From: Acytostelium subglobosum LB1
Taxonomy: Eukaryota > Evosea > Eumycetozoa > Acytosteliales > Acytosteliaceae
Length of the DNA stretch: 64,000 nucleotides
Assembly (NCBI RefSeq): GCF_000787575.1
Contig: NW_012236527.1
Span: forward strand, 372,001-436,000
Reading direction: 5' to 3'
Each line of letters opens with the position of its first letter. Positions within the stretch are counted from its first letter, which is position 1. The notes under the pieces are model-generated. The model was not told where the DNA came from. It saw only the letters and a list, made by a program, of their open reading frames with translations, and made no database searches. A program made the translations under genes and the position numbers. Below are positions 85-45,800 of the stretch, in pieces.

Positions 85-3000
85 ATGAATAATCTTTATG
101 TAGTTTTGATACTACTTGTCACCTTATCATTACATGCTAATGCAGTAAAACAAGAGTTCAAAGGACACTTCTATGAGTTACAGACTACACCTGCCACATA
201 CTCATCTGCATTGGCAGCATGTAAACAGTTGCCACCATATAATGGAATGCAAGGGTAATCAATCACTGATTTAATCAATCACTGGAACTATTCCACTCAC
301 TCACCCACTCACTCACCCACTCATTCAATCAATCAATCAAATTAGTTACTTGGCAACAATAACATCTAAACAGGAGAATGATTGGATTGTTGAGAAGTTC
401 TTGAGTACATTGACTGCAACACAGAAGTTCTGGATATCAGGTCAGATGTCCAAATCTGGTCAATTCTTCTATAGCTCTGGTCCAGAGAATGGTACACTAC
501 TCTATGATCGATCAACCTTAGAGTGTGGAATGTTCTGTGGATGGAATCAAAGTATGTATTAACTTCAACTAATGATTGATTGATTGATGGACTTACAATC
601 TGGGATGATCCACAGTTGAACCAAACTTTAATGATGTTGAGACCAACATTGCAGTGGAGTTCAATTATTACTCACCAGTCAAGTATGTTGGACAATGGAA
701 CAACTGGTCTGGTACACTCAGTGCCATGTATCTCTGTGAATTTGGTGGAATGGAAGGTTAGTACTTAGTCCAGTTCAAGGGCTTGGCCACAGCCAACTGA
801 CTCACTCATTAATCAATCAATCAATGACAAACAGACCCATTCATACCATCAGTCAGGACTGTTGGAGTCAATGATACAGCCACCATCAATAATATACTCA
901 ACTTGAATTTGTTGAATAAGAAATCAACAGATGTATCAGTAACATTTGTTAATGATGATGGAAGGACTTTCAAGGCATCGGATATATATATCACTTCGGA
1001 TACAACATTGTTAATGACAATTCCACCTGGTTCAGGAATGTATAATGTTACAATCACAGTGATGGTCAACAGTAACACTGTCACTTTAAAGACAACATAT
1101 CAGTACAAACCACCTCAATTAAGTATTGTGGTACCAGCACTATCAACTGGATCTACTATTACATTGGTTGGTGATAACTTGGTCGATTTAAAGACATCTG
1201 TATTCCTTACCAATCAGTCTGTTGCATGTAACAATGTGCAATTGGTCAAGCAAGGAGTGATAACATGTCAGACCTTTGTGGATCTCACCGGCCTTGTGAT
1301 CGTGCCCATCACAATCAATGTCGACTCTGTCTATTCCATCAACAATAATCCTGCCTTCAGTAAGTTTATCAAACTCAACGATCCATTCCAATCACTCACT
1401 TCCAATCACTCAATCAATCTTGGAACCATTCCACCACCGCTCAATTAATCAATCATTTACTCACACACTCACATCAACCAATCAACCAGATTATGTACCA
1501 GGAAATGGATATTATCAATGCTTCCGAACTTATACAAACTTGACAAACTCACTCCAGTTTGCTCATGATCAAACTGTTCGTGGAATGTCTGGTTACTTGT
1601 CTTATGTTAGTACAAAGGCTGCCAAACAGATTGCTTCAAACATGTGTCCAGATATGTATTACACCACATCATTATCGATGAACAATAACAATCAGATAAT
1701 CACATCTGATGATCCCAACATTGGTAGCATCATCACATTGGACCCAACCATCTCAGTCTCTGGAATGGGTGGTCAATACTACCTCTCGCCACGCAATGGA
1801 TACCTTCGCCAAGCACCAACAATGGGTGATGGCACATTCCTCCAATTGATCTATAAGAGTAAGTACCCTGAGAGACGTCGTCCCTCTGACCACTAACTGA
1901 TCAATCAATCAAAGATAACTTCCAAATGATACCTAGGACTTCGACGTACGTCGTCCCCACCATGGGTGATGAGATCGACTTAGAGTTGTTTCAGGTTGGA
2001 TCCCCATTGGACATTACATTCTACACTTATAATGGAGGACAACAGAGTGTAATCGCAAGGGACTACTACTCCGATCATATCTATATTGTCATACCACCTG
2101 ATGCCGGACCATCCAAACAACTCTTGGTATCATTCCAACCATTTGGCAGCACCACACCAGTCTCAAGTGTATCGATAACAATTGATCGTCTACGACCAAG
2201 TATCAACTCGTTGTCATTCATTGAGGATACAGTGAATGGACGCATGACATTCACCCTCAAAGGTGATAATCTGTATACTGATGCATCATTGATCCAATGT
2301 CAAGATTGGATCAAATGTGTGCTCCAACATCACCATGATGATGCCACACAAGTCGCTCACTTGCGTGCTAGAGTCCAGACTTCCAGGACCACCCGTCGCC
2401 ACAGTGTCTGTCAATGGTGCTCAATCATTGCCATTCACATACTCATTCATGGCACCAGTGGTTCGCTGGACCACCCCAGGTATTGTGAACAAGACCACCT
2501 TGATCACGATCATTGGAAACAACTTCTCGCCTGTCAACCTCACCGTTCAGATTGGTGGCGCACCATGTTATTCGGCAAATGTCACCAATAGTACCACAAT
2601 ACAATGTTTGTTTGATGGTACTGTTCAGATGCCTCCCAATCAGATCGATTCCCTAGCAGTCAATGTGTCCTCACAAGGAGAGTTTGGTTTCAACATTGTG
2701 TTCTACTACATCAACATCACCCAGTTGAACTGTAGTGGCAATGGAGATGCGGTTGGAGGAAGATGCGTCTGCAAGGAAGGGTGGACAAAGCAAGATTGTT
2801 CAGTTAAAGCTGAGATATCAACTGGTGAGCCAGTGATTGAACATGGATCAGTGCGCAGTCTGGCAGACGGAACATTATTCAACACATCAATAGTATACCT
2901 GCGTGAGGTTGATGGTGCGGGCGCGACGATCAAGACATTGGCACTGTCATCAATCACTTGGAAGGATGTGAGCAGTGCCGCTGACACCAGTGATGGCGCG

Positions 3001-3678
3001 ATCAACCTCGTTGGAACATTCTCAAATGACAACGCAACAATGGACATGCACATCAAACACTTCAAGACAGCAGATCAGGTGACATTTGCCGGCGAGACGA
3101 TGTACATGCCCGCCAACTCGGTAAAGTTCACGGTTGGAATACGCGAATGGACATTCAAATCGAAGCTTCATACTCTACAAGTTGTGTTTGAGAGCAAGAC
3201 TGCCCGAGAGAAGGGTCCATGCATACAGGCCAAGTCAATGGGAGGCATCAACTCATACTACATCGAGCTAGATCGCTCAGTGTTGTATGGATCATTCGCA
3301 GGACATCTTTACACAGATGGGCGAGTAGTGACATCTGTGCTCAAGGACATCGAGTCCACCGACGTTCTCTACGTCAACAACACATCAGAGTTGTCTTACA
3401 GATCATTCATCGAGGTGCCAGCTTTTGACACTGAGTGCATAGTTGATCCAAACTTCCAATCACTGGTCAAGGTCAATGAAGGAGGTGAGGGCGAGGCAAC
3501 GTCATGTTTGAAACCTGACAAGGACTACACCAAACTCATTATCATTGTTGTAGTATGCTCTGTGGCTGGAGCAGCCATCATCCTGGCCAGTATACTTCTG
3601 ATAAGGAAGTATAAATACCAACTACTATCACATGCTCCCAGTTCACTTGTCAACATGAGGACAATAAAGAAGACATAA
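85..3678 (+). CDS. C-type lectin / IPT-TIG / EGF single-pass membrane protein
   Basis: Likely cell-surface recognition or adhesion protein. Exons by phase matching: 85-254, 346-551, 616-756, 835-1359, 1490-1858, 1915-3678. The start at 85 gives a clear signal peptide (about 20 residues). Residues about 25-160 form a C-type lectin-like domain: GYLATITS, a WNQIEPNFND segment recreated by splicing exons 2 and 3, and a closing LCEFGG. Then come several TIG/E-set-like repeats, one EGF-like module (CSGNG...CVCKEGW...C, near 2733-2800), a Ser/Thr-rich ectodomain, and one transmembrane helix near 3535-3605 with a short basic tail. The family resembles dictyostelid tgr/TIG proteins. Oddity: the reading frame changes by one base near 2296-2300. 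Removing one base there gives a continuous TIG repeat (SLIQ-VKIGSNVCSN), and the summed exon length is one base over a multiple of three. This is either an assembly insertion or a real break. Expected length about 1,057 residues. Confidence 0.8.
283..295 (+). repeat. Intronic palindrome TGGAACTATTCCA (copy 1)
   Basis: Lies in intron 1 of the lectin/TIG gene, flanked by AATCAATCAC and CTCACTCACC. It belongs to the eight-copy set of 13-bp imperfect palindromes discussed in the findings. Confidence 0.8.
1421..1433 (+). repeat. Intronic palindrome TGGAACCATTCCA (copy 2)
   Basis: Lies in intron 4 (1360-1489) of the lectin/TIG gene, downstream of a CAATCAATC run. Confidence 0.8.
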
Positions 3679-3698
3679 GTGGTCGATCGATCAATCAA

Positions 3699-5225
3699 TC
3701 AAGTATTATTACTCATGATCCTCTGGAAATGGATCCTTCGTTGACCATTGTCCATGGATGCGTTGGTCATATGGAGTTGGCCAACAATGTCTGGTAGTTG
3801 TAATGTTTTGAGGTCAATGGTACCAGAATCCAGTATTATTTCCAATATTGTTTGATTATCATTGAGTGCCAACAGTGCAGTTGTCAATGGCATGTCATTG
3901 TTTATACCTCGATAATGCAAGGTAATGCTCTCAATTGATTTGTTGTTACGCAGTGATGATATTATACGCTTTGAATACTGACACGTTAAGCGGCGACAGC
4001 TGGAATTGTTCTCGAGATAGTGCGCCAGACTGTCTTCATAGCAGCTGAGACCTTGTTGTCCAACAAGGTTGATAGTCAACTCGCGAAACTGATTGAAACG
4101 AATGTCTGTAGAGATGTCAAGTTGAAAAGTGTCCGATAGCATCATAGATGTGATCTTTAGACTTTGAACACTTGTTTCCAACTGAATGTATAATGTTTGA
4201 TTAGCCTTTGTCGTTGGGCTTGTGGACATGTGTATCTTTCTTAGACGCGCAGCAGAGTTGATTGAGGATGTTATAGAGTTGTCAAGCATTATTGATGTCT
4301 TGAGTATCTTGAGCGTCTGGTTGTTGCTGAGATATGCGACCATCTGCCTCTTGGCCATCGTCTCATTCTTAAACTGACATTGAAGCAATGAGAGTGAAGT
4401 CAAGCTTGAAAGATCGGTCAATGATATAAAGAATATACTTGAGTCTGTGATGTAACATTGTATCTTGAGTGATGTCAATCGCGTGAACAGGGTGGCCTGT
4501 GACAGTAGACTGTTCTGGATGAACCTCTCATTGGACCCGTCGTCGCCGCGTTTCGTAGTGCTTCCAAATGCCAACTTGGTGAGTGATGACGCCCTGGCCG
4601 ACACCAGACTGGCCAGTGCAAGACTAGCATCTTGCAGTGGAGACAGGTATTCAATCTCCTCGAGCGGAGCATTGTTGTTCATCAAGGCCAATAGAGTGTT
4701 GTCGTGAATAGTAGTATGTGAGCTTTCAAAGGTGAATCGCCGCAGTGAAGAGAGATGTTCCACAAAGTTCTTTATGTCCACTGATCCAACCATTGAGAAT
4801 GGTGAGCCGCGCTCCTCAATCACTAGTGATTGTATGTTGTTGGAGGTGAGCGGTGTGTTTGGTGAGATGAGCAGAGGCATCACTCTTGTATCTTTGAGTA
4901 GTTTGTTCAGATCGATCAATGATGTATATATATGTCTAGGTGTCATTGATAAGTAATCCGATGTGATATGATCATATATCATAACAGAGTTTAGTAATAA
5001 CTTGTTATAAAGTACTTTGATCAAATTGAAGTAACGCCATGATAAAGTATTCAAAGCAAGTCTCCATCTCCAATAATATGATCTATCAACAAATGAATAC
5101 TCTATAATCAATGATGTTACATATTCTGGTATATTTATATAACTATTATTTTTATACATCTCTTTGTCTCTCACTTGATTGAATGATTGAGCTTTGAACA
5201 TCATCGTCTTGGTTTTGTCACACAC
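3699..5225 (-). CDS. Dictyostelid LRR-like / F-box-like family protein
   Basis: Single-exon ORF of 508 residues that I cannot assign to a named gene. The N-terminal segment (IPEYVTSLIIEYSF...WRWRLALNTLSWRYF) resembles the F-box-like opening of large dictyostelid multigene families, in which a short hydrophobic helix-rich start is followed by irregular leucine-rich repeats. From about residue 130 to the end there are repeated L-x-x-L-x-L patterns (for example LSSLTSLSLLQCQF and LKILKTSIMLDNSI) consistent with degenerate LRRs. No signal peptide or membrane helix is evident. The first Met (5225) and Met9/Met10 are all possible starts. The gene ends 20 bases from the stop of the convergent lectin gene. 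In this family a role in ubiquitin-ligase substrate choice is possible but is inference only. Confidence 0.7.
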   Translation of the reverse strand: MCDKTKTMMFKAQSFNQVRDKEMYKNNSYINIPEYVTSLIIEYSFVDRSYYWRWRLALNTLSWRYFNLIKVLYNKLLLNSVMIYDHITSDYLSMTPRHIYTSLIDLNKLLKDTRVMPLLISPNTPLTSNNIQSLVIEERGSPFSMVGSVDIKNFVEHLSSLRRFTFESSHTTIHDNTLLALMNNNAPLEEIEYLSPLQDASLALASLVSARASSLTKLAFGSTTKRGDDGSNERFIQNSLLSQATLFTRLTSLKIQCYITDSSIFFISLTDLSSLTSLSLLQCQFKNETMAKRQMVAYLSNNQTLKILKTSIMLDNSITSSINSAARLRKIHMSTSPTTKANQTLYIQLETSVQSLKITSMMLSDTFQLDISTDIRFNQFRELTINLVGQQGLSCYEDSLAHYLENNSSCRRLTCQYSKRIISSLRNNKSIESITLHYRGINNDMPLTTALLALNDNQTILEIILDSGTIDLKTLQLPDIVGQLHMTNASMDNGQRRIHFQRIMSNNT

Positions 5226-5596
5226 ATATTAGGCACATTTGGTCCTCTAATGATCGACAGACAGAGAGACAGGTCTGTATCTTTCGAATGATACAGCGCC
5301 AGTGATGGCGTATGACTGTCCATGTCATTGTGATGTGTGTGTCACAGCTCTGGGCCGACCACAAACAAGTACCTGTCGACTAACTTGCCACTCACTCAGC
5401 GTTCCGAGTTGTTGTTGTTGTTGTAGACCTTTCTTCGATCATCGTTCAACTAATGATGGTTGTAGCCACAAAGTTCTCAACGTATGGTATTGACTCTGTT
5501 GGTAACACTGATGCAGGGAATCTTGAGAAGCGGAGGATGAGGTGTGAGTCATAGTGTGTACACACATAGCATCTGCTCGGCTTCATCCAACATCAC
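5226..5596. other. Intergenic, 5' of the LRR-like gene
   Basis: About 370 bases between two minus-strand genes, so it should hold the promoter of the LRR-like gene. A 63-codon plus-strand ORF at 5302-5493 is Cys-rich, has no splice context and no recognisable domain, so I do not call it. I see no RNA gene. Confidence 0.6.
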
Positions 5597-6177
5597 TTAC
5601 AATGCTACCAATATGACAGTGTCCAACAATACAATGATAATACCGCCACCAACACCCTGATTGGTGTTCACTCCATAGAATGATCTCTCCTTCACTGTTG
5701 TTACAATATCTGAGGATTGTATGTGTGTCAGTCGAGTGCGTGCGATCAATGTATGAATGAATGAATGAATGAATGAGACTACTACTTACACTTGGTACCT
5801 GATATACTTATAAGCTCCATGTGAAGTCTGCCTTTTGACAGTGCATCACATATCTGAATTGTCTCGTTGAACTTGATCAACAATCCCTTCTGCGCCATCA
5901 ATGTGTTCTTTAGCTTCTGTCCAGGTGTCTTTGATACTAGTGCAGCAGACATGATTACCTTGCCCACCAACTGAGTGACATACCGCTCATACTTTGCCTC
6001 TGGCTTATAAGATGGAGGCATTATAATAGGTATTGGTTGAGTTGATAACTTATCAATCAACTCTGGATTAGGTGTTGACCTTCTCCTACTTGTCACACTA
6101 GATGGTGTTGTACCTATTGACACTGCATTGTTATTATTACTATTATTACTACTATTATTACTTGTAGTATTAGACAT
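5597..6177 (-). CDS. Small predicted tail-anchored protein, function unknown
   Basis: Two exons: 5790-6177 and 5597-5709, joined within codon TAT across an intron with donor GTAAGT and acceptor CTCAG. The product is about 166 residues. It has an Asn/Ser-rich N-terminus, then a Ser/Arg segment, then a conserved-looking helical core (KYERYVTQLVGKVIMSAALV...KLKNTLMAQKGLLIKFNETI). The second exon encodes a hydrophobic C-terminus (GGGIIIVLLDTVILVAL) that would act as a tail anchor in ER or mitochondrial outer membrane. I do not recognise the family. Start 6177 is the only Met that includes the whole Asn tract. Confidence 0.65.
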
Positions 6178-17748: not shown

Positions 17749-20700
17749 TTATTCGTTCACAAGGTCATCGTTTGGTGATGGCATTGTTCGACTGACTCTG
17801 TTGGATGATGCTGCTGGCGTTGTTGGCGCTGATCTAGACATCCTTTCACGTCTCAATACTTGTCCAATTGACTGTTTCTTCTTCTTTCTCCTTGATGTCA
17901 ATGGTGATACTGGTGACTCATCCTCAATATTATTATGATTATCATTGATGTCATCGTTATTGTTGTCAATGATATTGTTATCATCAACATATAATTGATT
18001 ACTATTTGTTGTTGTTGTTGTTGCTGTTGTTGGTTGTTGAATTGTTGATGAAGTTGATGATTGTAATGAATTATTTGGTTGAGGTGGATTATTGATAGTT
18101 GTAGTTGAATCCAGTGCTCGTCTAGTTGGTAACGGGGACATATTACTAATGTCATTGATATATGTATAATAGAACTTTAGTACATCCTTATTCTTGGCAA
18201 TACTCTTCTCTTGATCTTCAATCTGTTTCTTGAGCTAATAAGGTGTTAATAAATTGGCTAGGGATGGCCATAGTGTACTGGTATACTCACTGATTGAATG
18301 ATAGCCTTGTTACGCCAGAGGAAGTTAAACTTTGGGAAGAATATCAATATGATCGTACTGCTAACAAATAATATTAAGGCTACTTCCAGGATAAGGAATC
18401 TTGCTGTTGGATTACCATTGAAGCTAAATGTCAATGGCATCGTCGTAGTAATAATGATCAAGTAGTTGTATAACTAAGATTGATTGATTGAGTTAGTGAT
18501 CCAGGGTTTGTGTGATTGAGTGATTGGAATAGTTCCAGTTACTGACCAACTTACCAATAATCCAACATATGTTGCTTCATTGAATGTACCAGGGAAACTA
18601 CGATACTTCCTACATGTGTATACTAGGTAACATCCAATGATGAGGCATACAAGGAGATAGGCTAACTCTACTACAATGAATATCTCTGAACGTACTAGAT
18701 TGCAACGGATATAGTAAGATGCGGGATCACTTAGATCAAACTCTTTAGATGTACGTCCATTCAGGAATATACCACTGAGTACCACTGATATCACTGGAAT
18801 GATCAATAACAATGCCAAAGACTTGATCAAGAATGAGTTCTCCACATTCGTCTCCCTCATATACTGTATATCCTCCAGCAATCTCCACATACTAAACTGT
18901 TTGACCAACACTGAGCACACTACCAAACTCGTTGATATTGGGAATATAATGAACTGTGCCAGACATCTATGATTGATTGATTGAGTGAGTCAATGAGTGA
19001 ATGATTTAGTGATGGGATGATGTACTTACACTCCACGTGACTTGGTGAGGTAGAATACTCCGGAGCCTACGAGCGAGAGGATACAGCCAAGGAGGACAAT
19101 GTAGAGGAATAGTGGATTGGAGTATCGGATCACTCTGCTCTTGCGATATATAAAAGTGATCACTGTACACACTAATGCCAGTAGCAGTACTAATATGTTG
19201 AACACTCCCAACACGATAAGTGCACCACGTGATACCTTGACCTGATGTAATCCATAAAATATGACGCCGCCAAACTGTACCAATAACTGATCATGGGGTG
19301 GAAGAATGAATGTAATCATCTTGGTAACAGGTTCTACAATGATGAGTTAGAATGATTGATTGATTGAACGGCACATCACTCACTCATACTCAACTAACTT
19401 ACTCAATGAGTATGGCATGGAGAGGAAGGTTAGGTTGCAGTTTGTACCTGGCATGCCAGTGATGTGAAGGTCATGGAATGATGCTTGACCGCTGGGGAAT
19501 AGGTCGGCCACTGTGCGTCCTTGTAGAAGTACGTTATCACATGGGATAACAAAGAATGACATGTCACTGCGACCAAGTACCTGATGACCAAGTTGATCGT
19601 ACACTGTGATGTTGATGTTAACTGGAACGTTTGGAACAACATTATCATCCTCCAAATATACAGTGAAACTACTGATAATGGTCGTGGGCATCAAGGGGTC
19701 GTAGCCATAAGATAACACGTTCTCTGTTGATTCGACATCATTGAATATCAACTTGTTGGTGTAGTTGCCATTGTAGTGGAAGAGTGATGAACGATTGGCA
19801 ATGTTCAATCTGAATGCATCCCCTGAGAATACAAAAGGTTTGGTACTCGGGTATCCAACCAGACTCGTGGTAGCGTACAATATCGTGCCCCACACTGCCC
19901 TGTTGCCTTCATACAGTGAGCCATTTGATGTAAGTGTGCCAGTTTGATCCAACTCATATATACATCCTCTCTAAAGTATTGAAGGAGGTGATATCAGTCA
20001 GTTGATTGATTGAATGATTGGAATTATTCCAACTCAAAACATACATTGACACCATTATTTGCCATGAAGTATGATGATACTACGCGGATGTTGTAGCCTC
20101 CTGTGCCAGTGATTATTGCTCCATAGGCTCTGTTGAGATAGAATTGTGACCCGAATATATAGAAGTTACTTCGGAATTTGGAATTGATGATTGACGTTGC
20201 ATTGTTCAAATAGAATATTGAGTTGTCCATTGTAACAGTTGAACCATATTGAATAACAATGATATCGTCTACATTATTATATACGAACCAGGCACCGACC
20301 ATGTGCACTGATGCTTCATGAGTGATCTTCAAGACTGAGCTGGAGAATATACCTATATGATCATTGAGTGTGATTGATCGATTGATTGGTTGAGTGGGTG
20401 AGTGGAATGGTTCCAAGTTTGAGTGATTGAGTGATTGGGTGATTGAGTGGAATGATTCCAATGATTGATGGGCAATCCTTACCATCGAATTTACAATATG
20501 TCAGAGAGATTGAAGAGATTGAATCGGCTAGGATCACAGGCCCAGATAGATTGTAGAAGTAACAATCTTGGATGTTCATCATGCAGAAACTATCGTACTT
20601 GCCAATCTGTGCATTGACAACCCATATTCCATTGGCAAAGATTGATCGCTCGATGGTGAGCGCTTTGAATGCATGTGATTCAATGATGCCACAGTTGGGT

Positions 20701-21815
20701 GCATAGTTATCCGAGAACAATGAGTCCAATACCGTCACCAATGCTTCAGTCGCCACGAACATTGCGCCACCAGTAAAGTTGGCGGTATTATTAAAGAATA
20801 CATTATTGTCCAATCTTAAGAAACTCATGTAGAATGCACCAACTGCTCCACCTCCATTAGCATTATTACTCTGGAACAAACAACTTGAAACACGATGTAC
20901 CAATCCAACTATATTGTGATTGAGCGCGTGAGTGGTATGAGTGTGTGAGTGATTGATTGATGGAGGGATCATAGTTACATGTGTGGATTCCACCGGATGA
21001 GACTCCTTTGTTGTAGAAGAATTGAGAGTATGTGATTGTGGAGTTTGAGAAGACCATGGATATTGCACCACCTTTGCCCTGTTGACACCGATTGCTTATA
21101 AATGTCGATCGGAAACACATTAGCACTGACTGGAAACTGAATATTGAACCTCCATTCTCTTGTGCCCAATTCAATCTAAATATTGATGTTGTGATGTTGA
21201 CCTTGGCTACATGATTGATTGAGTGAGTATGTTTGGAATCATTCCATGTCATCGTGGATACCAACATTGTTCAAAGAATAGTGCACCGCCAGAGTGTGCG
21301 CTCATGTTGTTGGTGAATCGCGTGCGGATAAAGTGTGCCTGGCTGAGTGCTATGATGGAGATGGCACCGCCAGAGATGCGTTTGGACACACATCCATTGA
21401 TGGTCATGTCCATCACCACCAGTTTGGAGTAGTTTGATACGAATAGCCAGTGAAAGGTGCCGCGTCCATCAATGATCGTGTCATTCATCGATACACCTTT
21501 GAATATAATACGTTTATGTGTAATGTTGATACGGAAGTTACCTGGATCGACATAAGTCTCTGCTCCCAAGTATATTATATCATCACGACTTGTATTCAAC
21601 CATGGTATTGTATCTATTATATGTCTAAGTGTTCTACAAGGTGATGAACTATTGCCACATGTAATACTATCCACTCCAGCATTTGATAAATGATGTGTAT
21701 ATATTGTACGTCTAGTATTACTACTAAATGCTTGTACAAATGATGATGATGATCCATTGTTCGTCATTAACATCATCAAAGTTATTATTAATATTATATT
21801 GATTGAAGTTGACAT
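17749..21815 (-). CDS. Class C (family 3) seven-helix receptor with beta-helix ectodomain
   Basis: Nine exons: 21266-21815, 20979-21206, 20483-20908, 20045-20352, 19403-19970, 19030-19333, 18555-18966, 18291-18473, 17749-18234. They sum to 3,465 nt (1,154 residues) with consistent phases. A signal peptide is followed by about 470 residues of repeated short strands with GGA/GGS turns and N-x-F cores (NNANGGGAVGAFYMSFLRL, FTGGAMFVATEALVTVLD), typical of a right-handed parallel beta-helix. A beta-sandwich-like region precedes the membrane domain. Seven helices lie at about residues 730-975 with family-3 hallmarks: NPLFLYIVLLGC, the conserved Cys in CLAQFIIFP, FPGTFNEATYVGLLLYN and a PKFNFLWRN end. 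A coiled coil follows (LKKQIEDQEKSI), as in GABA-B-like receptors, then a basic, Ser/Asn-rich tail. Likely a surface receptor coupled to G proteins; ligand unknown. Intron 1 uses a weak donor (GTTGGT), the only one giving phase. Confidence 0.85.
18525..18537 (-). repeat. Intronic palindrome TGGAACTATTCCA (copy 3)
   Basis: Lies in the receptor-gene intron 18474-18554. Read on the sense (minus) strand it is identical to copy 1. Confidence 0.8.
20019..20031 (-). repeat. Intronic palindrome TGGAATAATTCCA (copy 4)
   Basis: Lies in the receptor-gene intron 19971-20044, next to a sense-strand CAATCATTCAATCAATC run. Confidence 0.8.
20403..20415 (-). repeat. Intronic palindrome TGGAACCATTCCA (copy 5)
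   Basis: Lies in the receptor-gene intron 20353-20482. On the sense strand it is identical to copy 2; the same intron holds copy 6. Confidence 0.8.
20448..20460 (-). repeat. Intronic palindrome TGGAATCATTCCA (copy 6)
   Basis: Second palindrome in the intron 20353-20482, 45 bases from copy 5, with CACTCAATCAC spacing between them. Confidence 0.8.
21234..21246 (-). repeat. Intronic palindrome TGGAATGATTCCA (copy 7)
   Basis: Lies in intron 1 of the receptor gene (21207-21265), close to the donor site. Confidence 0.8.
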
Positions 21816-28123: not shown

Positions 28124-30605
28124 ATGGCTTACGAGTCCACTTTTATGGAGCAGGTCGCGGCCTTGCTTCAAAAGTGTTATATTATAAAGAGGAAGCGTAG
28201 AGCTGAGACAATGACTGAGTTCTTGATTGGCGCACAATATGTTATCATCTTGATCGTGTTGAAGATGACTATACCCGCCACACCCGGCCAAGAAGCCGTG
28301 ATATACAACTCGGTGCCGGCCAGTCATGTGCTGGCGGGCATGCCCCTGCTGGGCTACGTCGACCTCTCGTCGGGCGGGCAGGCGGCGTCGTTGCTCAACC
28401 TAACAGGCTTCCCATTGGAGCACATCAAGCAGTTCACCAATGAGTCGGCCATGCTCGACACCTACCTCGGCAGTCCAGAGGCCTACTGGGGAGGTGTAAT
28501 CTTCAACGGTATCGACATTGACAACAACCTCATCAACTATACCATTCGTCTCAACAACTCGTTTGGCAGCATGCAGTCTTCGCCCTACCCCTACATTGAG
28601 CAGGGTATCCTATCAGCCTTCAGTAAGTAATCTTACCCTTGCCCTCGCCCTACCCTCGCCCTAACCCTCGACCTTACTCGACCTCAATAGCCCGCCTCAA
28701 GCTTGGAGACGACCAAGTACTTGGTAATGGATTCAATACGACACAGTACCCATCACCTGTCAATCCATTCGTGATCACGACATTCAATATCCTGTTCCCA
28801 ATCTACTTCCCATTGTTCTTTATGTACTCGCTGCAGCAACTCATCATCCTGTTGGTGACCGAGAAGAAGGACGGTATCAAAGAGGGCCTCAAGGTGATGG
28901 GCATGCGCGAGTCTGCATACTGGATATCAAACATCATCATGCAGTTGGTGATGAACATCATTCTCATCCTGGTCATGGAGATCATGTGCTACCCAAGCAA
29001 GGTGATACACTATTCATCGCCCGTCATGGTGTTCATATCATTCTTCTTCTACTCATTGACATTGATTGGCATTGCCTTTGCCATCTCCACATTCTTGAGC
29101 AATCCCAAGGCTGGCAGTGCCATATCGGCACTGTTCATCCTTGTTGGCATCGGTCTGTCTTGCTTCTACGAGTTCTACATCATTGAGCATCAGCCCGACC
29201 TCAAGTACCTCTTCTATCTCCTCTCCCCATGTGCCTTTGGTTCATTCCTCGTCCGTCTATCCTATGCCGAGGCTGAGAAAGTTGGTAAGTGTTTGGCTAG
29301 TCGCGAGCATGGGTCAAGGCCAAGCAACTAACTCATTCATTCATTCAATCAATCAATCAATCAATAGCCATACCTTGGAACGACCCCAACTTTGTCCAAC
29401 CATTGTTGTTCATGATCTTGGACTTTGTGTTGTACTCTTTGATTGCTTGGTACTCGATCGAGGTGTACCAGGGGGACTTTGGTACGGGCAAAGGCTACTT
29501 CTTCTTCTTGAGGAAGGACTACTGGGTGCAGTCAGACGTGCCCATCTATGAGCAGCGCTTGATCAATGGCGAGGGCAGCAAGAACATTGGGAAGGGCATC
29601 GAGTTGCGCGACCTCCATAAGGAGTACACGTCCAACACCTCCAAGGACAAGAAGGTGCGCGCTGTCAATGGCCTCTCGCTAAGCATCCCCAGCGGCACAA
29701 TCTTTGCTCTGCTCGGACATAACGGTGCAGGCAAGTCCACAACGATGGGCATTCTCACCGGTATGATGCCACCAACAAGTGGCGACGCATGGATCAATGG
29801 GCGCAGCGTACGCACTCAAATGGACTACATTCGCAAGCACATTGGCTTCTGCCCACAGAACAACATCCTCTATGCGCAGTTGTCTTGCGCTGAGCACCTT
29901 CGCCTGTTTGGCAAGATCAAGGGTGTACCAGCCGAGACGCTCGAGGCGTCGATCGTCACGTCGCTGCGCGAGGTCAACCTGCAGGACAAGACAGATGTGG
30001 CCAGTTCCTTGCTGAGTGGTGGCATGAAGCGTCGTCTGAGCCTTGCCATGGCCTTCATTGGCGACCCATCCATCGTCTTTTTGGACGAGTGCACTACCGG
30101 CCTGGACCCATACGCTCGCCATCTGATATGGGAGCTGCTGCAAAAGAAGAAGATCGGTCGCACCATCGTCATGACCACTCACTTTATGGAGGAGGCTGAG
30201 CTGCTTGGCGAGTCAATCGGCATCATGTCTCACGGCAAACTGCGCTGCATGGGCACATCAATGGAGCTCAAGGCGTTGTTCGAGCTAGGCTACATCCTCA
30301 CGTTCACTCTGGAGCGCACGGCCGGCACGTACGAGCAGTTCAACTCGTACTTCATGTCGCTGTTCCGCGACGCTGTGGCTGGCAAGCACAACCAGGCCAA
30401 CTTGGACAAGACTGGCACGTCCTCGGTCGGCGACCTCGAGATCTCGTATTCATTGTCACACGAGAAGTCCGAGAACCTCTCACGCTTCTTTGAGCATGTT
30501 GAAGAGCGCCAACAAGAGTTTGGCATCAAGCGTCTAGGTATCTCCATGACCACGCTAGAGGAGGTGTTCCTCAAGATCCAGAACGAAGAGGTCGACACCG
30601 AATAA
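28124..30605 (+). CDS. ABCA-family half-transporter
   Basis: Three exons: 28124-28622, 28691-29284, 29368-30605 (2,331 nt, 776 residues). The membrane domain comes first (the reverse of ABCG order): an N-terminal helix, a large lumenal loop, then a six-helix ABC2-type block with the family hallmark EKKDGIKEGLKVMGM. One nucleotide-binding domain follows at about residues 480-700: Walker A GHNGAGKSTTMG, Q-loop GFCPQNN, signature LLSGGMKRRLS, Walker B SIVFLDECTTGLDP and H-loop TTHFMEEAE. The C-terminal regulatory segment ends in the usual MTTLEEVFLKI. Dictyostelid ABCA proteins are commonly half-size, so this is complete; a role in lipid movement or endomembrane trafficking is likely. The first intron carries a telomere-like C-rich tract. 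Codon use is GC-rich. Confidence 0.95.
28629..28680. repeat. Telomere-like C-rich tract in ABCA intron 1
   Basis: Nearly the whole intron (28623-28690) is made of CCCTA/CCCTCGCCCTA units. In the other strand this reads GGGTTAGGGCGAGGG, like the tracts in the nonaspanin and Utp3 introns. Confidence 0.8.
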
Positions 30606-37702: not shown

Positions 37703-39916
37703 TTAATGTAGATAGGTCTGGCCTCTGACTGCGCTGGAGTTGATAGCCTTGGTACCTCTGTACTTGCCATCCTGGCGCTCGGCCTTGGGCGTGGCTCTGT
37801 CCTTCTTCTCCATGGCGGCCTCGTACTTGTGACGATGACGCAGATGTGGTGTGCGATGCTCTCTCTTTCTCGTTCTGGTGAGACCTCTGTTGGTCTCGAT
37901 CTGCTTTGAGATCTTTCTCTTGCCATCGACCATGTCTCTGTACGATGAGTAGTCGTTGGGGCCTCTTGGCACGCCGTCATACTCGACCTCCTCCTCGTGG
38001 TCAGAGTGCAGCTCCTCATTGTCCTCGTCTCTGTTTCTCAAGAGTCTAGTCTTCTTCCTCTCCTGCAGAGGCAGATCCTCATCGCCACTTCTTGCTCTCT
38101 TTGTCTTTCCAACCTGATTCAGCGAGCTCATAATCTGTTCCATTCTCTTCTTCTTCAAGTACTCCTTGTCATCGCGACTTGCTCTATCTTCCTCAGTCTC
38201 CAGCAATCCACTCAGATCGTTAAAGTCAGCCAAGTCCTATATTGGTAGTTGGTGTTAGTATGTGCGCCATTCCCGTTTGATTGATTGATCGATCCATCGA
38301 TTGAACATACATTAAGACCATCGGACAATCTCTTCTTCTTCTGGATCTTCTTGTCCTTCTTGGTTTGAGTCAAACGAACAAAGTTGTTCTCTTCGTACTC
38401 TCTGATCTCCTTGGCATCGTCGTCCTCCATGCGGTTGGGGTCATCGACATAGTCGTCCAGCTGATCGGGAGCATCACCAAACATCTCCTCGATATCTCTG
38501 GCCATGGAACTCTTGATGGCACGCTCCTTCTTCTTGAGCTCGCGGTTCTTCTTTCTGATCTCGATCGACTCCTCCTCCTCATATCGCTCGGCGGCCGATT
38601 GTGGCGCCTGGTACAGACCGGCCTGCTGCATCAGTCTGGACTCCTCGTCCATCTCGTCGTCGTCGTGTGACATATCCTTGAGGTTGGGCTTGAATCGCAT
38701 TGGGTCGTCCTTTGAGGCCGACACGACACCGAGTGTCGCGGTCTTTAGTATCTTTTCGATCTGGTACTGCAGCTTGTTGTCCAGCGGCTTGACCTTCTCC
38801 AGGATGACACGTATCTTGACCAGCTGGTCAATAACTGGATGGTCCTTGATTGATGCGCCCGATGCCTTAAGCATCAAGAAGTATGTAATGTTCAAACAAT
38901 AGCTTAGTAACAGGTCTTGGTTGGTTGGATGAGAGGGTGAGGGTTAGTGTCGAGGGTCAAGGGCGAAGGACTCCCGTGCGTTAGGGACTTACGATATTTG
39001 GTCTCGAGGAAGCTGACACCTTTGGTGGTGGGCAGCTGCTCCTTCTTTATCCTGTCGAGCAATGGCATCAAGGTATACTTGATCTCTGATATCTTCTCTT
39101 TGTAGTCATCGAGCAACTCGAATAGGAGTGGCGACTCCTTCATCAGATACTGCAACTTCTCCTTCTTGGAGAATGTGGACAGGTTCTTTTGGAGCAGCTC
39201 GACATCGTCGCTGTTGTCCAGTGCACTGGTGATCTTGGCCATAGTTGGGTTGGCGGCAGAGGCCGACTCGGCCTTCTTCTTCTTCTTGCCCTCGGTGGCC
39301 TCCTTCTTTTGAGCGAGGATGTCGTTGAATGACTCACCCTCCTCATAGTCCTCCTCTCGCACCAGCTTTGCTCTCTGTTTCTGCAGCTCGATGGCTTCCT
39401 TCTCCTCCTCCTCCTCGTCCTCTGAGCTGACGTCCTCGCCATCAAACTTCTCTGTGTAATAGTCCGACTTCTCCTTGCCCCATGACATCTTATTCTCCAA
39501 GTCCTTATTCTTTCTTGACTTCTTTGCAGACAAGTCCATGTCGTCATCTTGGTCATCATCGTCAAAATCAACCTCATCATCGTCGTCTACATAGTCATCC
39601 TCATCATCATCGTCAAAGTCTTCAACCTCTTCATCAGAGACGTCAACAGGCAAAACCTCGACCTTCTTCTTTATGTTGCTCTTTGGTTGCTTTATATCTG
39701 TAGTTGATAAATCAATCTTATTCTTCTTATCGACGACTATATATATATGATTGAGCAATGTTAGTTAATACCATCATTGAAGGAATCCCATAAATGTAAA
39801 CATTTACAATCATCAATCTCTCCTTTGCCAAAGAGATCCTCAATTGACTTTTCTGAACGAGTTGATCCTTTGGTCGTTGCTGGAACTTTCTTAAATGCCT
39901 TCTTAGTTGGTCCCAT
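37703..39916 (-). CDS. utp3: Utp3/Sas10, small-subunit processome protein
   Basis: Four exons: 39808-39916, 38993-39736, 38311-38915, 37703-38236 (1,992 nt, 663 residues). The N-terminal part is acidic (VDVSDEEVEDFDDDDEDDY) with a MSWGKEKSDYYTEKF motif typical of Utp3. The Sas10/Utp3/C1D domain covers about residues 205-300 (FSKKEKLQYLMKESPLLFELL to YHLLLSYCLNITYFLMLKAS, recreated by splicing). The C-terminal Sas10 domain ends RGLTRTRKREHRTPHLRHRH and AINSSAVRGQTYLH. It acts in the nucleolus in 18S rRNA maturation. The acceptor of exon 3 was chosen at CCAAG (38916-38917) because only it keeps phase; intron 2 includes a GAGGGTTAG-type tract. A 240-base divergent promoter is shared with the Lin1-like gene. 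Confidence 0.95.
38931..38974. repeat. G-rich telomere-like tract in a Utp3 intron
   Basis: GAGGGTGAGGGTTAGTGTCG and a following GAGGGTCAAGGGCG occupy much of intron 38916-38992. Here the G-rich strand is the plus strand, so the transcript carries the C-rich version. Confidence 0.65.
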
Positions 39917-40156
39917 TATATATGTATATATATTGTATTATCTTTAACTCTTTATCGTGTTTTTGTCAAATGACCAACTAAACTTTCGTTCGTCATCCAT
40001 TCATTTTTAATTTTGAATGATTTTTTCAATTTATCCTCTCACCTCACTTTGAAGGAAGTTCATTATGTTTGGTTGATTACATGCTGCAGTGATGAACATT
40101 GTTCAATGAACTTGACAAGTCATTGTATATTTATAAGATAGAGATAGAGATAGAGG

Positions 40157-41631
40157 ATGGATAATAATAATAACAAACGAAAAGGAGAAGATATACCTGT
40201 TGGAGGTGCTGCAGAGAAGAAGGTCAGATTCACAGAACAACCTGAAGTTAGAGTGTTCCATAATGACAACAGTAATGACAATGGCAAAGACAATGGAAAT
40301 GGCAAAGACATTGGCAATGACAATAAGAAGGAGGATGTAGAGATGACATCAGTATCATCAAGACCATCATTATATATTGATGATGATGATATTATGCAAC
40401 AGATAGCAAGAGCTGATGAGAAGTATAAGAAAAGAATGGAGGATACAAAGAGGAGAGAATCATACTTTGATAGGAGTGAGATGCGTGATGCTGTTGAAGA
40501 AGTCGGTGAAGATGGTATTATAAAGAGAGTGGAAGGTGAAGAAGAAGAAGAACCAGATGACTATGACCATCCATCAAACAACAACAAGTCACGCAACAAC
40601 AACACAAAACAAAGAGTCAGAGAGGAGGATGATGATGATGACGATGACGACGAAGTGGAGATAATGCCATTCAATCTGCGACAGGAGAGAGATGAGGGTC
40701 ATTATAAACAGGATGGCACTTATGAGCAGGCCAGTGGAGAGAAGGAGGACGACCCTTGGCTACAGGAGTACGATGAGGTGTGGAGGAATAAGGTGCCAAA
40801 GCTCAGCAGGAAGGAGTTGTTGAAACAGGAGGCAGAGGATCAGACAGATGAGAACGAGGACCTGTGGGAGAAGGAGGAGGAAGAGGAGAAACAACGTAGA
40901 CGCAAGGGTCCCACAGTCGAAGAACGTGATAATAGGCGAATGTGTCTGACAAAGTTGGTTGGCATACTGGAAGATGGCGAGACATCACTGGCAGCATTGA
41001 GAAGACTTGGTGGAAACAACAAACCAGTGATCAAGAAGAAGTTGAACAAACATCAATTGTTGAAACAACAGCAACAACAGCAACAAGAGACCACGACCAA
41101 GCCTGCAGAGGACAGTGATATGGAGGAGAAGAGGAAACAACAATTCCTTCAACTTACAGAGGCCACTGATTATCTGTTAGCCAATGGATTTATGAGTATG
41201 TATCCTGGACTTTGGACTTTGGACTTTGGACGCGGACACGACAACTGACCTCCCTTCCTTCGACTCAAACAGATATATATACCGAATCAAAGGAAGTTGT
41301 ACAACAACTCTTGTATAAAGATATTGGAAGGAAGCCACCTGCACAAGTACGATCATCCAATGCCAATAATAATAATAATGGAAACAATCAATCAACGACG
41401 ACGGCGACGACGGACCAACAACAACAAGCACGAGCTCAATTGGAGAATGATGATAATGATGAGGATAACATACTATGGGAGTACAAATTGACTGATGGCA
41501 ATGTGTATCAGAATTTCACTGGACTGGCCATGAGACAATGGAAAGACGGAGGATTCTTCACGGACAAAGGAGTGGTAGCCCGCAAGATCGGAGACTATAG
41601 CTTTGTACCAGTGGAGCAACTAAACTTCTAA
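40157..41631 (+). CDS. Lin1 / CD2BP2-like GYF-domain U5 snRNP protein
   Basis: Two exons: 40157-41195 and 41273-41631 (1,398 nt, 465 residues). The N-terminus has the KKVRFTEQPEVRVF motif and a highly acidic middle (DDDDDDDEVEIMPFNLRQE with the MPFNLRQE block typical of Lin1/CD2BP2). The centre holds DPWLQEYDEVW and the helical WEKEEEEEKQRRRKGPT stretch. The C-terminal GYF domain covers about residues 405-463 (ILWEYKLTDGNVYQNFTG, MRQWKDGGFFTDKG, VARKIG); the classical GYF core reads GGFF here. In yeast and human this protein belongs to the U5 snRNP and the tri-snRNP assembly path in the nucleus. It starts about 240 bases from the divergent Utp3 gene. Confidence 0.92.
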
Positions 41632-41773
41632 ATTACCTGTATAAACATGTGATGTCCAAGATCTTTGATGTGAACATCACTTCGCGAAAATGATTGATTG
41701 ATTGAGTGAGTGCGATTGATCACACGTCATTCACACATAGTTATTCAAAGAGATAGAGATAAAGATAAAGAGG

Positions 41774-42820
41774 ATGAGTAATATATATGGAAAGAAGTCT
41801 GGAGAACGTGTAAAGGTTGTGTTGATAACAGGATGCTCGGGAGGCATTGGTAGGGAACTGGCTTCAATGTTCAAGTTCTATGGATTCAATGTATATGCAA
41901 CATCTCATTCAATTGAATCAATGAGTGATATGAATGATAGAGGTATACATACTCTACAACTAGATGTGACCAATCAAGAAATGATACAATCCGTTGTCAA
42001 TTCAATCATTGAAGTTGAAGGCAGAATAGACATACTCATCAACAATGCAGGTGTACTCAGCATGGGACCTGCGATCGAACTGACCCTCAACGAGCTTAGA
42101 CGCGTCATGGGTAAGTCGAGAACAAGATTGATGTTGTTCAAACATCTCATCTAACATGTTATGTTCAATCAATCAATCAAATGAATTAATGAACAGACGT
42201 TAACTTCTTTGGACTGGTGGCAACAACGATGGAGGTGAGCAAACACATGGTACAACAGAGATGTGGAATCATAATCAATGTTGGAAGTACTTCGGGCATC
42301 ACCGCAACACCATTCCTCAGCTTTTATTGCGCAAGTAAGGCGGCGGTTCAATCATGGTCAGATACATTGAGGATGGAGTTGGACCCTTTTGGAGTAAAGG
42401 TGATCACGGCAGTGGCCGGCCCCATCTCTGGCACTGAGATACTCAATCGTGCCATACCAAGACTGCGTCAACTGGTGGACAATCCAGACTCACTGTACTA
42501 TCCCATCAGAGAACAAATCATTGGACGCACATCGATGATCAAAGGTGCGCAGATGACACTTCAAGGCTTTGCCGACACAGTGATGCGAGTGGTCTTTGGC
42601 AGACGACTGCCTGCCGTCTTCCGATATGGACGTGGATCACTATTCCTCATGTTCTTCTCGATGCTACCCTATTGCATCTCAGACTACTACCAAAAGAAGA
42701 GATGTGGATTGGACATACTCAAATCAATCATTNGCTCAATCAGCTGGTGTATCCAAAGTCCCATCAACATCACCATCATCCAATGTCCGAGTTGTGGTCA
42801 CCTCTCCCATCATCAACTGA
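41774..42820 (+). CDS. Short-chain dehydrogenase/reductase (AYR1/retinol dehydrogenase-like)
   Basis: Two exons: 41774-42110 and 42197 to about 42820. A Rossmann fold begins at residue about 15 with VLITGCSGGIGRELA; LDVTNQ, LINNAGVLSMGPAIEL and the catalytic INVGSTSG...FYCASKAAVQSW (YxxxK) follow in order, then VAGPISGTEI after the active site. This is a classical SDR, closest in pattern to membrane-associated 1-acyl-DHAP reductase or retinol-dehydrogenase-like enzymes that use NADP(H) on ER or lipid droplets. A hydrophobic segment (GSLFLMFFSMLPYCI) lies near the end. An N at 42733 falls in the last coding part; reading one frame gives a TCAA-like tail to 42864, the other gives AQSAGVSKVPSTSPSSN and a stop at 42820, which looks more protein-like. 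The end is therefore uncertain. Confidence 0.85.
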
Positions 42821-42886
42821 ATCATCTCAGTCACTGTAAATACATCAATCAATCCCAATCATAAATGAATGAATGAATATGACATC

Positions 42887-45800
42887 CTAGTTTAGTGTAC
42901 CTCTGCACTTTGGTGACTTGCAGAGACATGCTATCTTGACGTCCTCCAATGGGAACTTGTAGTCGTACGTAATCTCTTCTCCAATGTTGATATCTCTCTT
43001 GGCATATATAACAATCTTCTTATGTGATCCAGTTTGAATTATCTTTGCTATACAGTTTGGCTACAGAGAGAGGTTGAAAGGTTAATGAATGAACTAGATG
43101 AACAAGATGAATGAATGAATGAACTTACATCACAACAATGATTAATGAACCTTGCCAAGTTACCCTTGAATGTGGCATCAATGATATTGTCGTCGTCTAT
43201 TCTAAAGAGATAGCTGCTACCAATGCCTTGCTTGACGTATCGCTTCTCTCGCTCGTCTGCAACCTTTTGACGAATGATCTCTCCAATGTACTCGATCACC
43301 ATGTCCTTGGCGGGGATGGGCTCCAGTGCAAACAGACCCCAGTCGTGGATGGATGAACGGGAGAATCTGATCATCTTCTTCCTGGATGTGAGGATCGTGT
43401 CGCCACCCATTCTGCTCTCGTATCGACTGCTTCGTGCCGACTTGGTCAGCTCGATCTCCAGACCAGCCGTCCTGCGCACGGTTGATGCTGCCTGTTGTTG
43501 TTGCTTCTTGAGCTCGCGGTCCAGCTTGGAATAGGACTCTGTCCTGGCGCAGCCACTCGGGTTGCCAATGGGCAGTATCTCATCCTGGGCGTGCTCCTCA
43601 TCGTCGTCGAGGGGCGCCTGCTGGTCATCGACTTCCATGTCCTCGTCGATCACGCCATTGTTGCTCTGATTGAGAACGTACTTGAGGTAGTAGGCGTCTT
43701 CGTCGTCGGGTGGGGTCGCCTCCTCAGCGCGTCGCTGCTGCTTCTGCTGCTGTTTCTTCGTCTTTCTCTTCTTCTTCTTCTCGCGCTCTCGTTGCTTGCG
43801 TTGCTCGGCCTCCAATATCTCCTGATTCATCAGGTCCGACTCTGAGATCGACTCCTCCGAGTCACTGCTGTTGAGTGAGGCGGCTGCTGTGGATTGCTCG
43901 CTGGTTGTGGCTGGATTGGTGGTGGGGTGGACAGGGGAGCTCCTCGCCTCCTCGTCCTCTTCGTCGTCGTCGAATATATCATCGCCATGATGTGTCTTTG
44001 TTGGCTTCTTTCTAGGCGCACGAGTGCTGATCCTGCTACTTCGTTGCTGTTTCTCCTCAGTCGACCTTGGCTTCCTCCTTTGTATCCTTCTTGGCTCATC
44101 ATCATCGGCATATCCAACATCCTCGACCTTCTTCTTGGAGTACTTTGTGTTCTTCTTGAATGACGGCAGGGAGGCGATGTCAAAGGTCGACTCTGACTTG
44201 TCGGCGCTGGCCAGGGCAGTGCGCGTTGGTGTCACCGGCTCCAAGGTTGGGGTGGGCGCTGCCTGCTCTTCCTGAGGCTGCTGCTTGACGGCAATGGCCG
44301 TCGTCCCTGACTTGCTCAAAGGAGTGTCTGCGCCGCCCTGTCCCGATAGATGCTGGAGCTCGATGTTCTTGATGGCTGCTGCAATCTCTGCCTCGACAAT
44401 AGCCTTCTTGGCATCCTTTGACGAGATGGCCAACAGCTCCTTGATTACAATACGCTCGCACAGCTCTTGTATCAGCTCAGTGTTCTCCAGCATTAACTTC
44501 CTGCGATCGATTGGAGGATGTGACTCTTCAACAGGAGTCTCGCGCTTCTCATCCTTTCGTTTGGCTGGGTCTGTTGTTGAAGATGATGATGACGACAGTG
44601 TGTTGGACTTGTTCAAGTCCAGTGCTGTGGCTACTGGTGGTTGGTTGTCTGTGTGTTGTTGGGCCACCATTGTAGGTGTGGTCGAAGGAGTTGATGATGC
44701 TACAACTGGAGGCTTTTCGCCTGAATGATATGGACTTTGTACATTGTGACCCTGTTGTTGTTGTTGATGAAGTGGAGGTGTTGTAGGCTTTGAGAGTGAT
44801 TGATGATTCTGACCAGCTGGGGGCCTTGATGCATAGTAGTGAGGAGGAGCATGTTGAGGAGGTGGATAATTATCTCGCCTTGGTGAATACATTGAGTCGG
44901 ATTTGTCGTACGAGTGGTCCTTTGGTCGTTGTCCCCTGATGGGCGACGTGGTCGAGTCGGTGGGATGTGCTGGGTCGTACTCAAACTGTGGAGGTGGAGG
45001 CGGAGGTGTCGTTGTCTTTGTGGGTATGTCCATTGTTGATGCTGTTGTTGACACAGATGAGTTGTCTTGTGGCTTTGATGATGTTGTTGTGATTGTGTCC
45101 ATGTCTCCACCGCCATTAATACTGCCATTGTTGTTGCCAGTGTATTGTTGTTTGAATGATGACTTTGAGTGACCAAACTGTGACATCCAGTCGCCTGCTG
45201 GCACAGTACTATACGATTGATTGAGTGTTGGTGATGTCACAGGGTTGCTGCCATACTCCGATATTCCTATATCGCTCATCAATGCAGACGTCGACAATAA
45301 CCTCTAAATGATTGATTGGGTGTGAGTGGGTGGAATAGTTCCATTGATTGAATGATCGAGTGAGTGATCAACTAACCTTCTTTGACGATGAAGTCAGCGA
45401 GTCGAACATGGTCTGAGAGACATAACCTGAAGGATCAAGATTGATTCTGATCTTACGTCCATGGATGAGAGGATTCTCGCCAAAGGTTTTGAAAGCTTTG
45501 ATGGCAGAGTTGGCCTCGCTGAAGCTGACAGTTGCAATGCCTGTGCTGATCTTGTTACCCGAGGGCAGGTAGAACACCTTGGTTCGCTCAATCTGTCCAT
45601 AGCGTCCAAACTGATCGCGTAACACCTTCTCGTCGGCGTTGGGTGGCAGGTTCGACAGATGTATGACCTTGGGCTGCACGGTGACCTGTGTGTTCTTGTC
45701 GCTGATAAAGAGTGGCACGGGGAAGTCGGGATTGAGCATCGACATGCTGTTGAGGATGTTGGCGTGGTGGCTGTGGCGCGGGTCTACAAAGTCGACAAAG

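What the first reader, a model, noticed from the sequence alone, without database searches (positions are those of the whole stretch)
283..45343. Sense-oriented 13-bp palindrome TGGAAYNATTCCA found eight times, always inside introns
Copies at 283, 1421, 18525, 20019, 20403, 20448, 21234 and 45331 all fit TGGAA(C/T)NATTCCA on the sense strand of the host gene, although the hosts lie on opposite strands and are unrelated (lectin/TIG, class C receptor, Set1). The asymmetric inner bases (Y N A) keep the sense orientation every time, and three copies are identical in different genes. All I saw are in introns, beside CAATCAATC runs. This could be a splicing-related RNA hairpin (TGGAA/TTCCA stem), a protein-binding intronic signal, or part of a small dispersed intron element.
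Basis: partly seen in the sequence, partly recalled or inferred. Interest (0 to 1): 0.75.

Follow-up and report, generated by a model that had tools for sequence, protein, structure and literature searches.

The report
Intron-restricted 13-base palindrome in slime mold
One exact 13-letter, nearly self-complementary DNA word turns up well over a thousand times in this social-amoeba genome, mostly inside introns in the part examined, so some unknown factor probably reads it, and whether it is read in the RNA or in the DNA is still open.

Summary
All 8 copies are at the stated places, against 0.06 expected. The genome (30.7 Mb, very probably Acytostelium subglobosum) holds 1554 TGGAA-NNN-TTCCA sites against 41 for the backwards control. 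In 264 kb that I annotated, 16 of 18 sites lie in predicted introns, which are 11% of the DNA; none is in an exon. The word is sharp: introns hold 16 exact and 8 one-mismatch copies, with no excess at two mismatches. Arm spacing is always 3 in introns. Copies avoid the zone next to the 3' splice site. A transcript-sense extension, TCAC(TCA), follows the palindrome.

The sense-orientation argument is weaker than stated. Three of the 8 copies are symmetric. In all annotated introns 26 of 30 asymmetric copies are sense, which their G-poor composition explains (p = 0.38). Selection for a generic hairpin is not supported. FNIP-type codons and decaying repeats do not explain the set.

Best reading: an intron-specific cis-element bound by an unidentified sequence-specific factor, slightly more likely on pre-mRNA than on DNA. 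My literature listings showed no description of it.

The parts
283..295 (+). motif copy TGGAACTATTCCA (sense)
   Evidence: in predicted intron 255-345
1421..1433 (+). motif copy TGGAACCATTCCA (sense)
   Evidence: in predicted intron 1360-1489
18525..18537 (-). motif copy TGGAACTATTCCA (sense)
   Evidence: in predicted intron 18474-18554
20019..20031 (-). motif copy, centre TAA in sense; symmetric at the Y..A positions, no orientation information
   Evidence: intron 19971-20044
20403..20415 (-). motif copy TGGAACCATTCCA (sense)
   Evidence: intron 20353-20482, which holds two copies
20448..20460 (-). motif copy, centre TCA in sense; symmetric class
   Evidence: same intron 20353-20482
21234..21246 (-). 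motif copy, centre TGA in sense; symmetric class
   Evidence: intron 21207-21265
45331..45343 (-). motif copy TGGAACTATTCCA (sense)
   Evidence: intron 45304-45376
255..345 (+). predicted host intron in a ComC-type surface protein gene (predicted 85-3678)
1360..1489 (+). predicted host intron in the same gene
18474..18554 (-). predicted host intron in 7tm_3 (class C) receptor gene (predicted 17749-21767); 4 of the gene's 10 predicted introns carry the motif
19971..20044 (-). predicted host intron in the receptor gene
20353..20482 (-). predicted host intron in the receptor gene, two motif copies 45 apart
21207..21265 (-). predicted host intron in the receptor gene
45304..45376 (-). predicted host intron in RRM + SET (Set1-like) gene (predicted 42887-47019)

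Best explanation
TGGAAYNATTCCA (best written in transcript sense as TGGAA-[TCA, CTA or CCA]-TTCCA-N-TCAC) is an intron-specific cis-element read by an unidentified sequence-specific factor. Shown by computation: it is vastly over-represented, sharp, of fixed spacing, concentrated in introns, clustered in particular introns and genes, placed mostly between the 5' splice site and the branch-point region, and followed by a transcript-sense extension. Inferred: the factor binds the pre-mRNA and marks or assists splicing of the introns that carry it (13 of 323 in the 264 kb), as an intronic splicing enhancer would. Not shown: that it is read in RNA rather than DNA, what the factor is, or any effect on splicing.
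For: Over-representation: 1554 versus 41 genome-wide; Y-N-A form 1047/1074 versus 2/1. Introns: 16 of 18 sites in 28.9 of 264 kb, p = 5e-14, and p = 1e-6 against non-coding DNA alone; a looser gene-finder setting put 18 of 18 in introns. In further loci 46 of 55 sites fell in predicted introns, 5 intergenic, 4 exonic, and in three last loci 5 of 7, 1 and 1. Matched repeat context: 12 of 103 versus 0 of 89 windows. Sharpness. Spacing: 62 pairs at 3, none at 0-2 or 4-12 in introns. Only 2 of 42 single-site introns have it within 27 nt of the 3' splice site, 16 expected. Transcript-polar extension: C at +3 in 41 of 59, p = 2e-9; TCACTC at one downstream offset in 16 of 59, at the others shown in 0 to 4 of 56 to 59. 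Gene-level clustering: 7 pairs versus 1.1, p = 0.002.
Against: The allowed centre triplets form reverse-complement pairs (TCA/TGA, CTA/TAG, CCA/TGG), and antisense-form copies also sit in predicted introns, as expected if double-stranded DNA is read. Core orientation needs only base composition. No good hairpin evidence. Host genes look functionally mixed, so there is no obvious regulon (translations judged by eye; Pfam only on the three window hosts). Motif introns have ordinary 5' splice sites and no bias to first introns. One copy lies downstream of its branch-point-like word, and 27 of 61 sites have no such word. All gene models are my own ab initio ones, without RNA data.
Confidence: 0.45

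Rival explanations
1. The palindrome is a double-stranded DNA site for a homodimeric DNA-binding protein that acts inside gene bodies (transcription, chromatin or DNA maintenance); introns host it because exons cannot.
For: Two-fold symmetry of the arms, fixed 3-base spacing, centre preferences mirrored on the two strands (63 TRG to 6 TYG among the 69 distinct rows I used; CTA+CCA 26, CAA+CGA 0), orientation explained by composition, no hairpin signature for 3-base loops.
Against: Intergenic DNA with the same CAATCA context lacks it (0 of 89 windows); the 3' extension follows transcript sense, not core symmetry.
Confidence: 0.32
2. It is a hallmark of an intron family that spread by copying (introner-like), the 13-mer being the best-preserved part.
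For: Motif introns share a G-poor CAATCA/ACTCAC make-up (13 of 13 and 11 of 13, versus 149 of 310 and 70 of 310 other introns). Two stretches about 500 bp apart in L053, one in a predicted intron and one in a stretch called intergenic, share 43 of 50 bases including the motif. A 130-base query holding two copies found 53 matches, itself included, at 71-100% identity, though low complexity inflates this.
Against: Flanks are otherwise unalike beyond the 3' extension, several copies in one intron have different centres and flanks, no terminal repeats or target duplications were evident by eye, and decay would leave many two-mismatch copies (no excess).
Confidence: 0.12
3. A simple RNA hairpin selected for structure.
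For: UGGAA/UUCCA can form a 5-bp stem with a triloop, -3.8 kcal/mol at 22 C. In single-site introns the stem forms slightly more often than with shuffled flanks (0.71 versus 0.64). Inverted repeats with some other loops, mostly even ones, are enriched in introns (for example loop 4: 35 versus 19 to 22).
Against: Loop-3 stems of other sequence are not enriched (16 observed, 18 to 21 in shuffles); TGGAA/TTCCA with other loops absent from introns; all native sites 0.55 versus 0.68 for implants and 0.76 for implants in G-poor introns.
Confidence: 0.04
4. Pairing with a spliceosomal snRNA, for instance U6 UGGAACGAU beside ACAGAGA.
For: This genome's U6 has UGGAACGAUACAGAGA.
Against: The preferred A before TTCCA breaks the sixth pair, which the rarer TNG form would make; both U1 copies and one of two U2 copies fetched have neither half. 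U4 and U5 were not looked at.
Confidence: 0.03
5. Artefact: chance, simple repeats or FNIP-type codons (G-x-I-P).
For: Some coding copies read like FNIP repeats (L003, L050; L006 and L034 were called introns but read like such codons; my reading, no Pfam run).
Against: The FNIP-shaped pattern has only 62 matches in total, many of them not of that kind; the control count is 38 times lower for the general form and several hundred times lower for the Y-N-A form.
Confidence: 0.02

Closest known systems
Mer1-type intronic splicing enhancer of budding yeast (AUACCCUU)
   Same: Short fixed sequence inside introns that recruits a splicing factor (PMC6380292, passages read).
   Different: Mer1 serves four meiotic introns with non-consensus 5' splice sites; here 13 of 323 predicted introns in 264 kb, mixed genes, ordinary 5' splice sites, a palindrome, factor unknown.
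Highly iterated palindromes (HIP1) of cyanobacteria
   Same: One short palindrome far above chance genome-wide; one-base deviants concentrate at the outer positions (PMC4390886, abstract; here 5 of 8 one-mismatch intron copies).
   Different: HIP1 is tied to DNA methyltransferases in bacteria; here the site is concentrated in introns of a eukaryote.
Introner elements
   Same: Intron-restricted repeated sequences, some with inverted repeats (PMC7789003 and PMC9860276, passages read).
   Different: Introners are whole introns with shared sequence, some with terminal repeats and target duplications; here about 13 to 20 bases are shared.
Roquin constitutive decay element (triloop hairpin)
   Same: A short triloop hairpin read by a protein (PMC5603727, start of abstract in listing).
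   Different: CDEs lie in 3' UTRs and differ in loop and stem (recalled); here the arm sequence is fixed and no structure-level selection for 3-base loops was seen.

Membership tests
Intronic splicing enhancer | Located in introns, away from splice signals | tested here: met
   (predicted introns)
Intronic splicing enhancer | Strand-specific (read in RNA) | tested here: inconclusive
   3' extension is transcript-polar; core orientation explained by composition
Intronic splicing enhancer | Changes splicing when mutated | not testable with these tools
   no RNA data
Introner elements | Introns share sequence over their whole length | tested here: inconclusive
   (low complexity inflates matches); one pair sharing 43 of 50 bases
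Introner elements | Terminal inverted repeats or target duplications (present in some families) | tested here: inconclusive
   none evident by eye in the introns printed; no systematic search
Highly iterated palindrome (HIP-like) | Short palindrome far above chance, sharp | tested here: met
Highly iterated palindrome (HIP-like) | Spread over the genome, coding and non-coding (recalled) | tested here: not met
   0 of 18 in exons, 2 of 18 outside introns
Roquin-type stem-loop | Selection on structure, stem can vary (recalled) | tested here: not met
   for loop 3
Mobile element (MITE/SINE) | Longer shared sequence decaying by mutation | tested here: not met
   mismatch spectrum, flanks

The most novel reading that the evidence does not exclude
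A dedicated factor reads a fixed 13-base palindrome in about one in twenty-five introns of a social amoeba (13 of 323 in the stretch annotated), independent of gene function: a genome-wide internal intron label that none of my literature listings described for any eukaryote.
Probability: 0.35. Interest if true: 0.8.

Novelty: new variant of a known kind. Interest (0 to 1): 0.6.

Why it matters
Introns are thought to need little beyond the 5' splice site, branch point and 3' splice site. A sharp, abundant and nearly self-complementary word concentrated in introns implies an extra reader, either of pre-mRNA or of DNA inside genes. It can be tested in an organism for which transcriptome data exist (PMC4334915), and it gives a clean handle for finding the protein.

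Tried and rejected
Rejected: chance; FNIP-type codons as the main source; a decaying repeat; selection for 3-base-loop hairpins of any sequence and for hairpin exposure; intron-mediated enhancement near gene starts (no 5' bias); a functional regulon (mixed genes by eye); pairing with U1, U2 or U6 (weak lead only for U6). Known RNA families: Rfam at gathering scores on the window and four loci gave only a tRNA.

Results that do not fit neatly: inverted repeats with loops 0, 2, 4, 6 and 8 are enriched in introns with the motif masked; I did not resolve this, the commonest listed one is of the self-complementary ATCGAT kind. Nine other spacings together give 732 against 380 for the control, a mild excess. 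In single-site introns the stem forms slightly more often (0.71) than with shuffled flanks (0.64) or in other introns (0.68), but less than in G-poor introns (0.76).

Limits of the data: the gene models come from my own hidden Markov model, trained on 264 kb with the motif masked and one strand-symmetric non-coding model (the first run failed to start, and over-called introns). Of 62 intron sites I dropped 3 (two FNIP-like, one duplicate) to reach 59 in 49 introns. At least one of the 59 (L029:547) reads like FNIP coding on rereading, and L028:2405 is doubtful. (51 motif introns, 42 with one site, 61 sites for the branch-point count) did not drop the two FNIP-like ones. L053-L055 (7 sites: 5 intron, 1 exon, 1 intergenic) were picked as duplicates and are in none of the tallies of 55 or 59. 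L027-L032 were chosen for site clusters, L033-L052 are the next listed sites without selection, L001-L006 the first listed. Gapped-pattern counts on the reverse strand count several gap lengths per site, so 569 and 81 are matches, not sites. For one search I used the distinct rows visible in the listings: 69 of the TNG class and 66 from the first 100 rows of the CNA class, all conditional on CAATCA within 30 nt.

Literature: the listings (titles and starts of abstracts) showed no description of this motif. Passages were read of PMC4334915, PMC5114724, PMC7789003, PMC9860276 and PMC6380292, the abstract of PMC4390886. One search failed on a search term and was repeated. Part failed (donor scores); donor hexamers were tallied.
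Full report
Where it is. The window lies at C51:372001-436000 of a 30.73-Mb, 56-contig eukaryotic genome. The name is inferred.

The observation. TGGAAYNATTCCA occurs at the 8 stated places and nowhere else in the window; 0.06 are expected. The more general TGGAANNNTTCCA has the same 8 places. Genome-wide there are 1047 forward and 1074 reverse matches of the Y-N-A form, against 2 and 1 for the pattern read backwards, and 1554 sites of the general form against 41. Of the 50 sites listed, 45 obey the Y-N-A rule on one strand.

Introns. I fetched flanks to make 264 kb of contiguous sequence and annotated it with an ab initio gene finder in which the motif was masked and introns and intergenic DNA shared one strand-symmetric model. 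It predicts 323 introns (28.9 kb), 174 kb of exon and 61 kb of intergenic DNA. Of 18 sites, 16 are in introns, none in exons, 2 outside; one of the 2 looks by eye like an intron in a 5' UTR. A looser setting, which over-calls introns, gives 18 of 18. Binomial p is 5e-14 against all DNA and 1e-6 against non-coding DNA only. In the other fetched loci 46 of 55 sites were in predicted introns, 5 intergenic, 4 exonic; by eye, at least two of the 46 and at least two of the 4 exonic ones read like FNIP codons. Three late loci add 5 intron, 1 exon and 1 intergenic site. The CAATCA context alone does not bring the motif: 12 of 103 CAATCA-rich windows in introns carry it, 0 of 89 in intergenic DNA.

Sharpness. 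In the 323 introns there are 16 exact copies, 8 with one mismatch (0.55 expected) and 9 with two (10.7 expected). Five of the 8 single mismatches are at the outermost bases. Arm spacing is 3 in 62 of 62 intronic pairs with spacing 0 to 12; genome-wide, nine other spacings together give 732 against 380 for the control. Among 5+5 words with at least two G and gaps 0 to 6, TGGAA-N3-TTCCA and its overlapping shifted versions are the commonest in introns apart from TTGA-type repeats (top four per gap shown).

Centre and orientation. Among 59 intronic sites the sense centres are TCA 21, CTA 13, CCA 13, TAA 3, TGA 3, TAG 2, TTA 2, TGG 1, TCG 1. Thus 26 of 30 copies that are asymmetric at the outer centre positions are sense, and the three main triplets with their reverse complements account for 53 of 59. 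Motif introns are C 30%, G 6%, other introns C 23%, G 13%. Given the first composition, 26 of 30 is expected (p = 0.38); given that of all introns it is not (p = 0.007). Antisense-form copies have G-richer tails (mean 13% versus 4%).

Transcript-sense extension. Directly after the palindrome, in transcript sense, come T, C, A, C, T, C, A at +2 to +8 in 47 to 69% of sites; C at +3 is 41 of 59 (p = 2e-9). TCACTC occurs at one downstream offset in 16 of 59 and in at most 4 of 56 at any other downstream offset shown; upstream it reaches at most 3 of 30. With a sense core the tetramer TCAC follows in 26 of 66 sites, with an antisense core in 8 of 69 (p = 0.0003); among G-free tails it is 21 of 48 and 6 of 27. 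This polarity is the best remaining sign of RNA-level reading.

Position. In 42 single-site introns only 2 copies lie within 27 nt of the 3' splice site (16 expected, none of 10,000 simulations as low). Of the 34 sites with a recognisable branch-point-like word, 33 are upstream of it; 27 further sites had no such word. The median distance from the 5' splice site is 25. Any bulky element might be excluded from the branch-point zone, so this fits both an RNA and a DNA reading.

Clustering. In the 264 kb, 13 introns carry the motif; 4 are in one gene and 2 in another (7 same-gene pairs, 1.1 expected, p = 0.002). Three introns have two or more copies (0.5 expected). Host genes look functionally mixed (by eye; Pfam on the three window hosts).

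Hairpin tests. If structure alone were selected, other 5-bp stems with a 3-base loop should be enriched; they are not (16 seen, 18 to 21 in shuffles). Inverted repeats with several even loop lengths are enriched (for example loop 4: 35 against 19 to 22), which I did not resolve. The native sites form the stem with mean probability 0.55, against 0.68 for the motif implanted in other introns and 0.76 in G-poor ones; for single-site introns the native value was 0.71 against 0.64 with shuffled flanks. Taken together this is no clear sign of selection for an exposed hairpin.

snRNA pairing. This genome's U6 contains UGGAACGAUACAGAGA, so UUCCA could pair just beside the 5'-splice-site-binding box. 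But the preferred base before UUCCA breaks the next pair, and both U1 copies and one of the two U2 copies fetched have no matching half. U4 and U5 were not examined. I keep this as a weak lead only.

Conclusion. The sequence is a real element, very probably maintained by selection and concentrated in introns. RNA-level reading (probably splicing-related) and DNA-level reading by a dimer are both open; I give 0.45 and 0.32. Effects on splicing, the factor and conservation in other species are not shown.

Noticed in passing
L006:1501, L003:1501, L050:1597: Some copies of the same 13-mer read like codons of FNIP-type repeats (G-x-I-P-x-S-V), a coincidental second source of the word (my reading, no Pfam run).
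   Followed up: partly
L053:861-910 and L053:1359-1408: Two stretches about 500 bp apart share 43 of 50 bases including the motif; one is in a predicted intron, the other in a stretch my gene finder called intergenic. It hints at copying between introns.
   Followed up: partly
L054 and L055: A duplicated coding segment 8 kb apart on C42 carries an identical motif intron in antisense form (TAG).
   Followed up: partly
L056, L057, L058: Besides the intact U6 gene, two copies on the same contig keep the 3' part of U6 plus downstream DNA, with unlike 5' sequence.
   Followed up: no
L059 versus L060: Two U2 snRNA genes are strongly diverged; one holds UGGAAC and GUUCCA in its second half, the other lacks both.
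   Followed up: no
window 28642-28674, 55063-55089, 57660-57695: Short arrays of GGGTTAGGGCGA / CCCTCGCCCTAA / GAGGGTT type, telomere-like, inside the contig.
   Followed up: no
predicted introns of C51:272001-536000: Strong strand asymmetry of simple repeats in introns: CAATCA 14.7 per kb in sense against TGATTG 2.7 per kb.
   Followed up: partly
predicted introns of C51:272001-536000 and other loci: With the motif masked, inverted repeats with even loop lengths are enriched over shuffles.
   Followed up: no
window 63385-63456: tRNA gene on the + strand.
   Followed up: no
L001 and L042: What looks by eye like the same channel-protein gene with an identical motif intron is present on contigs C2 and C17: duplicate or alternative assembly of one locus.
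   Followed up: no
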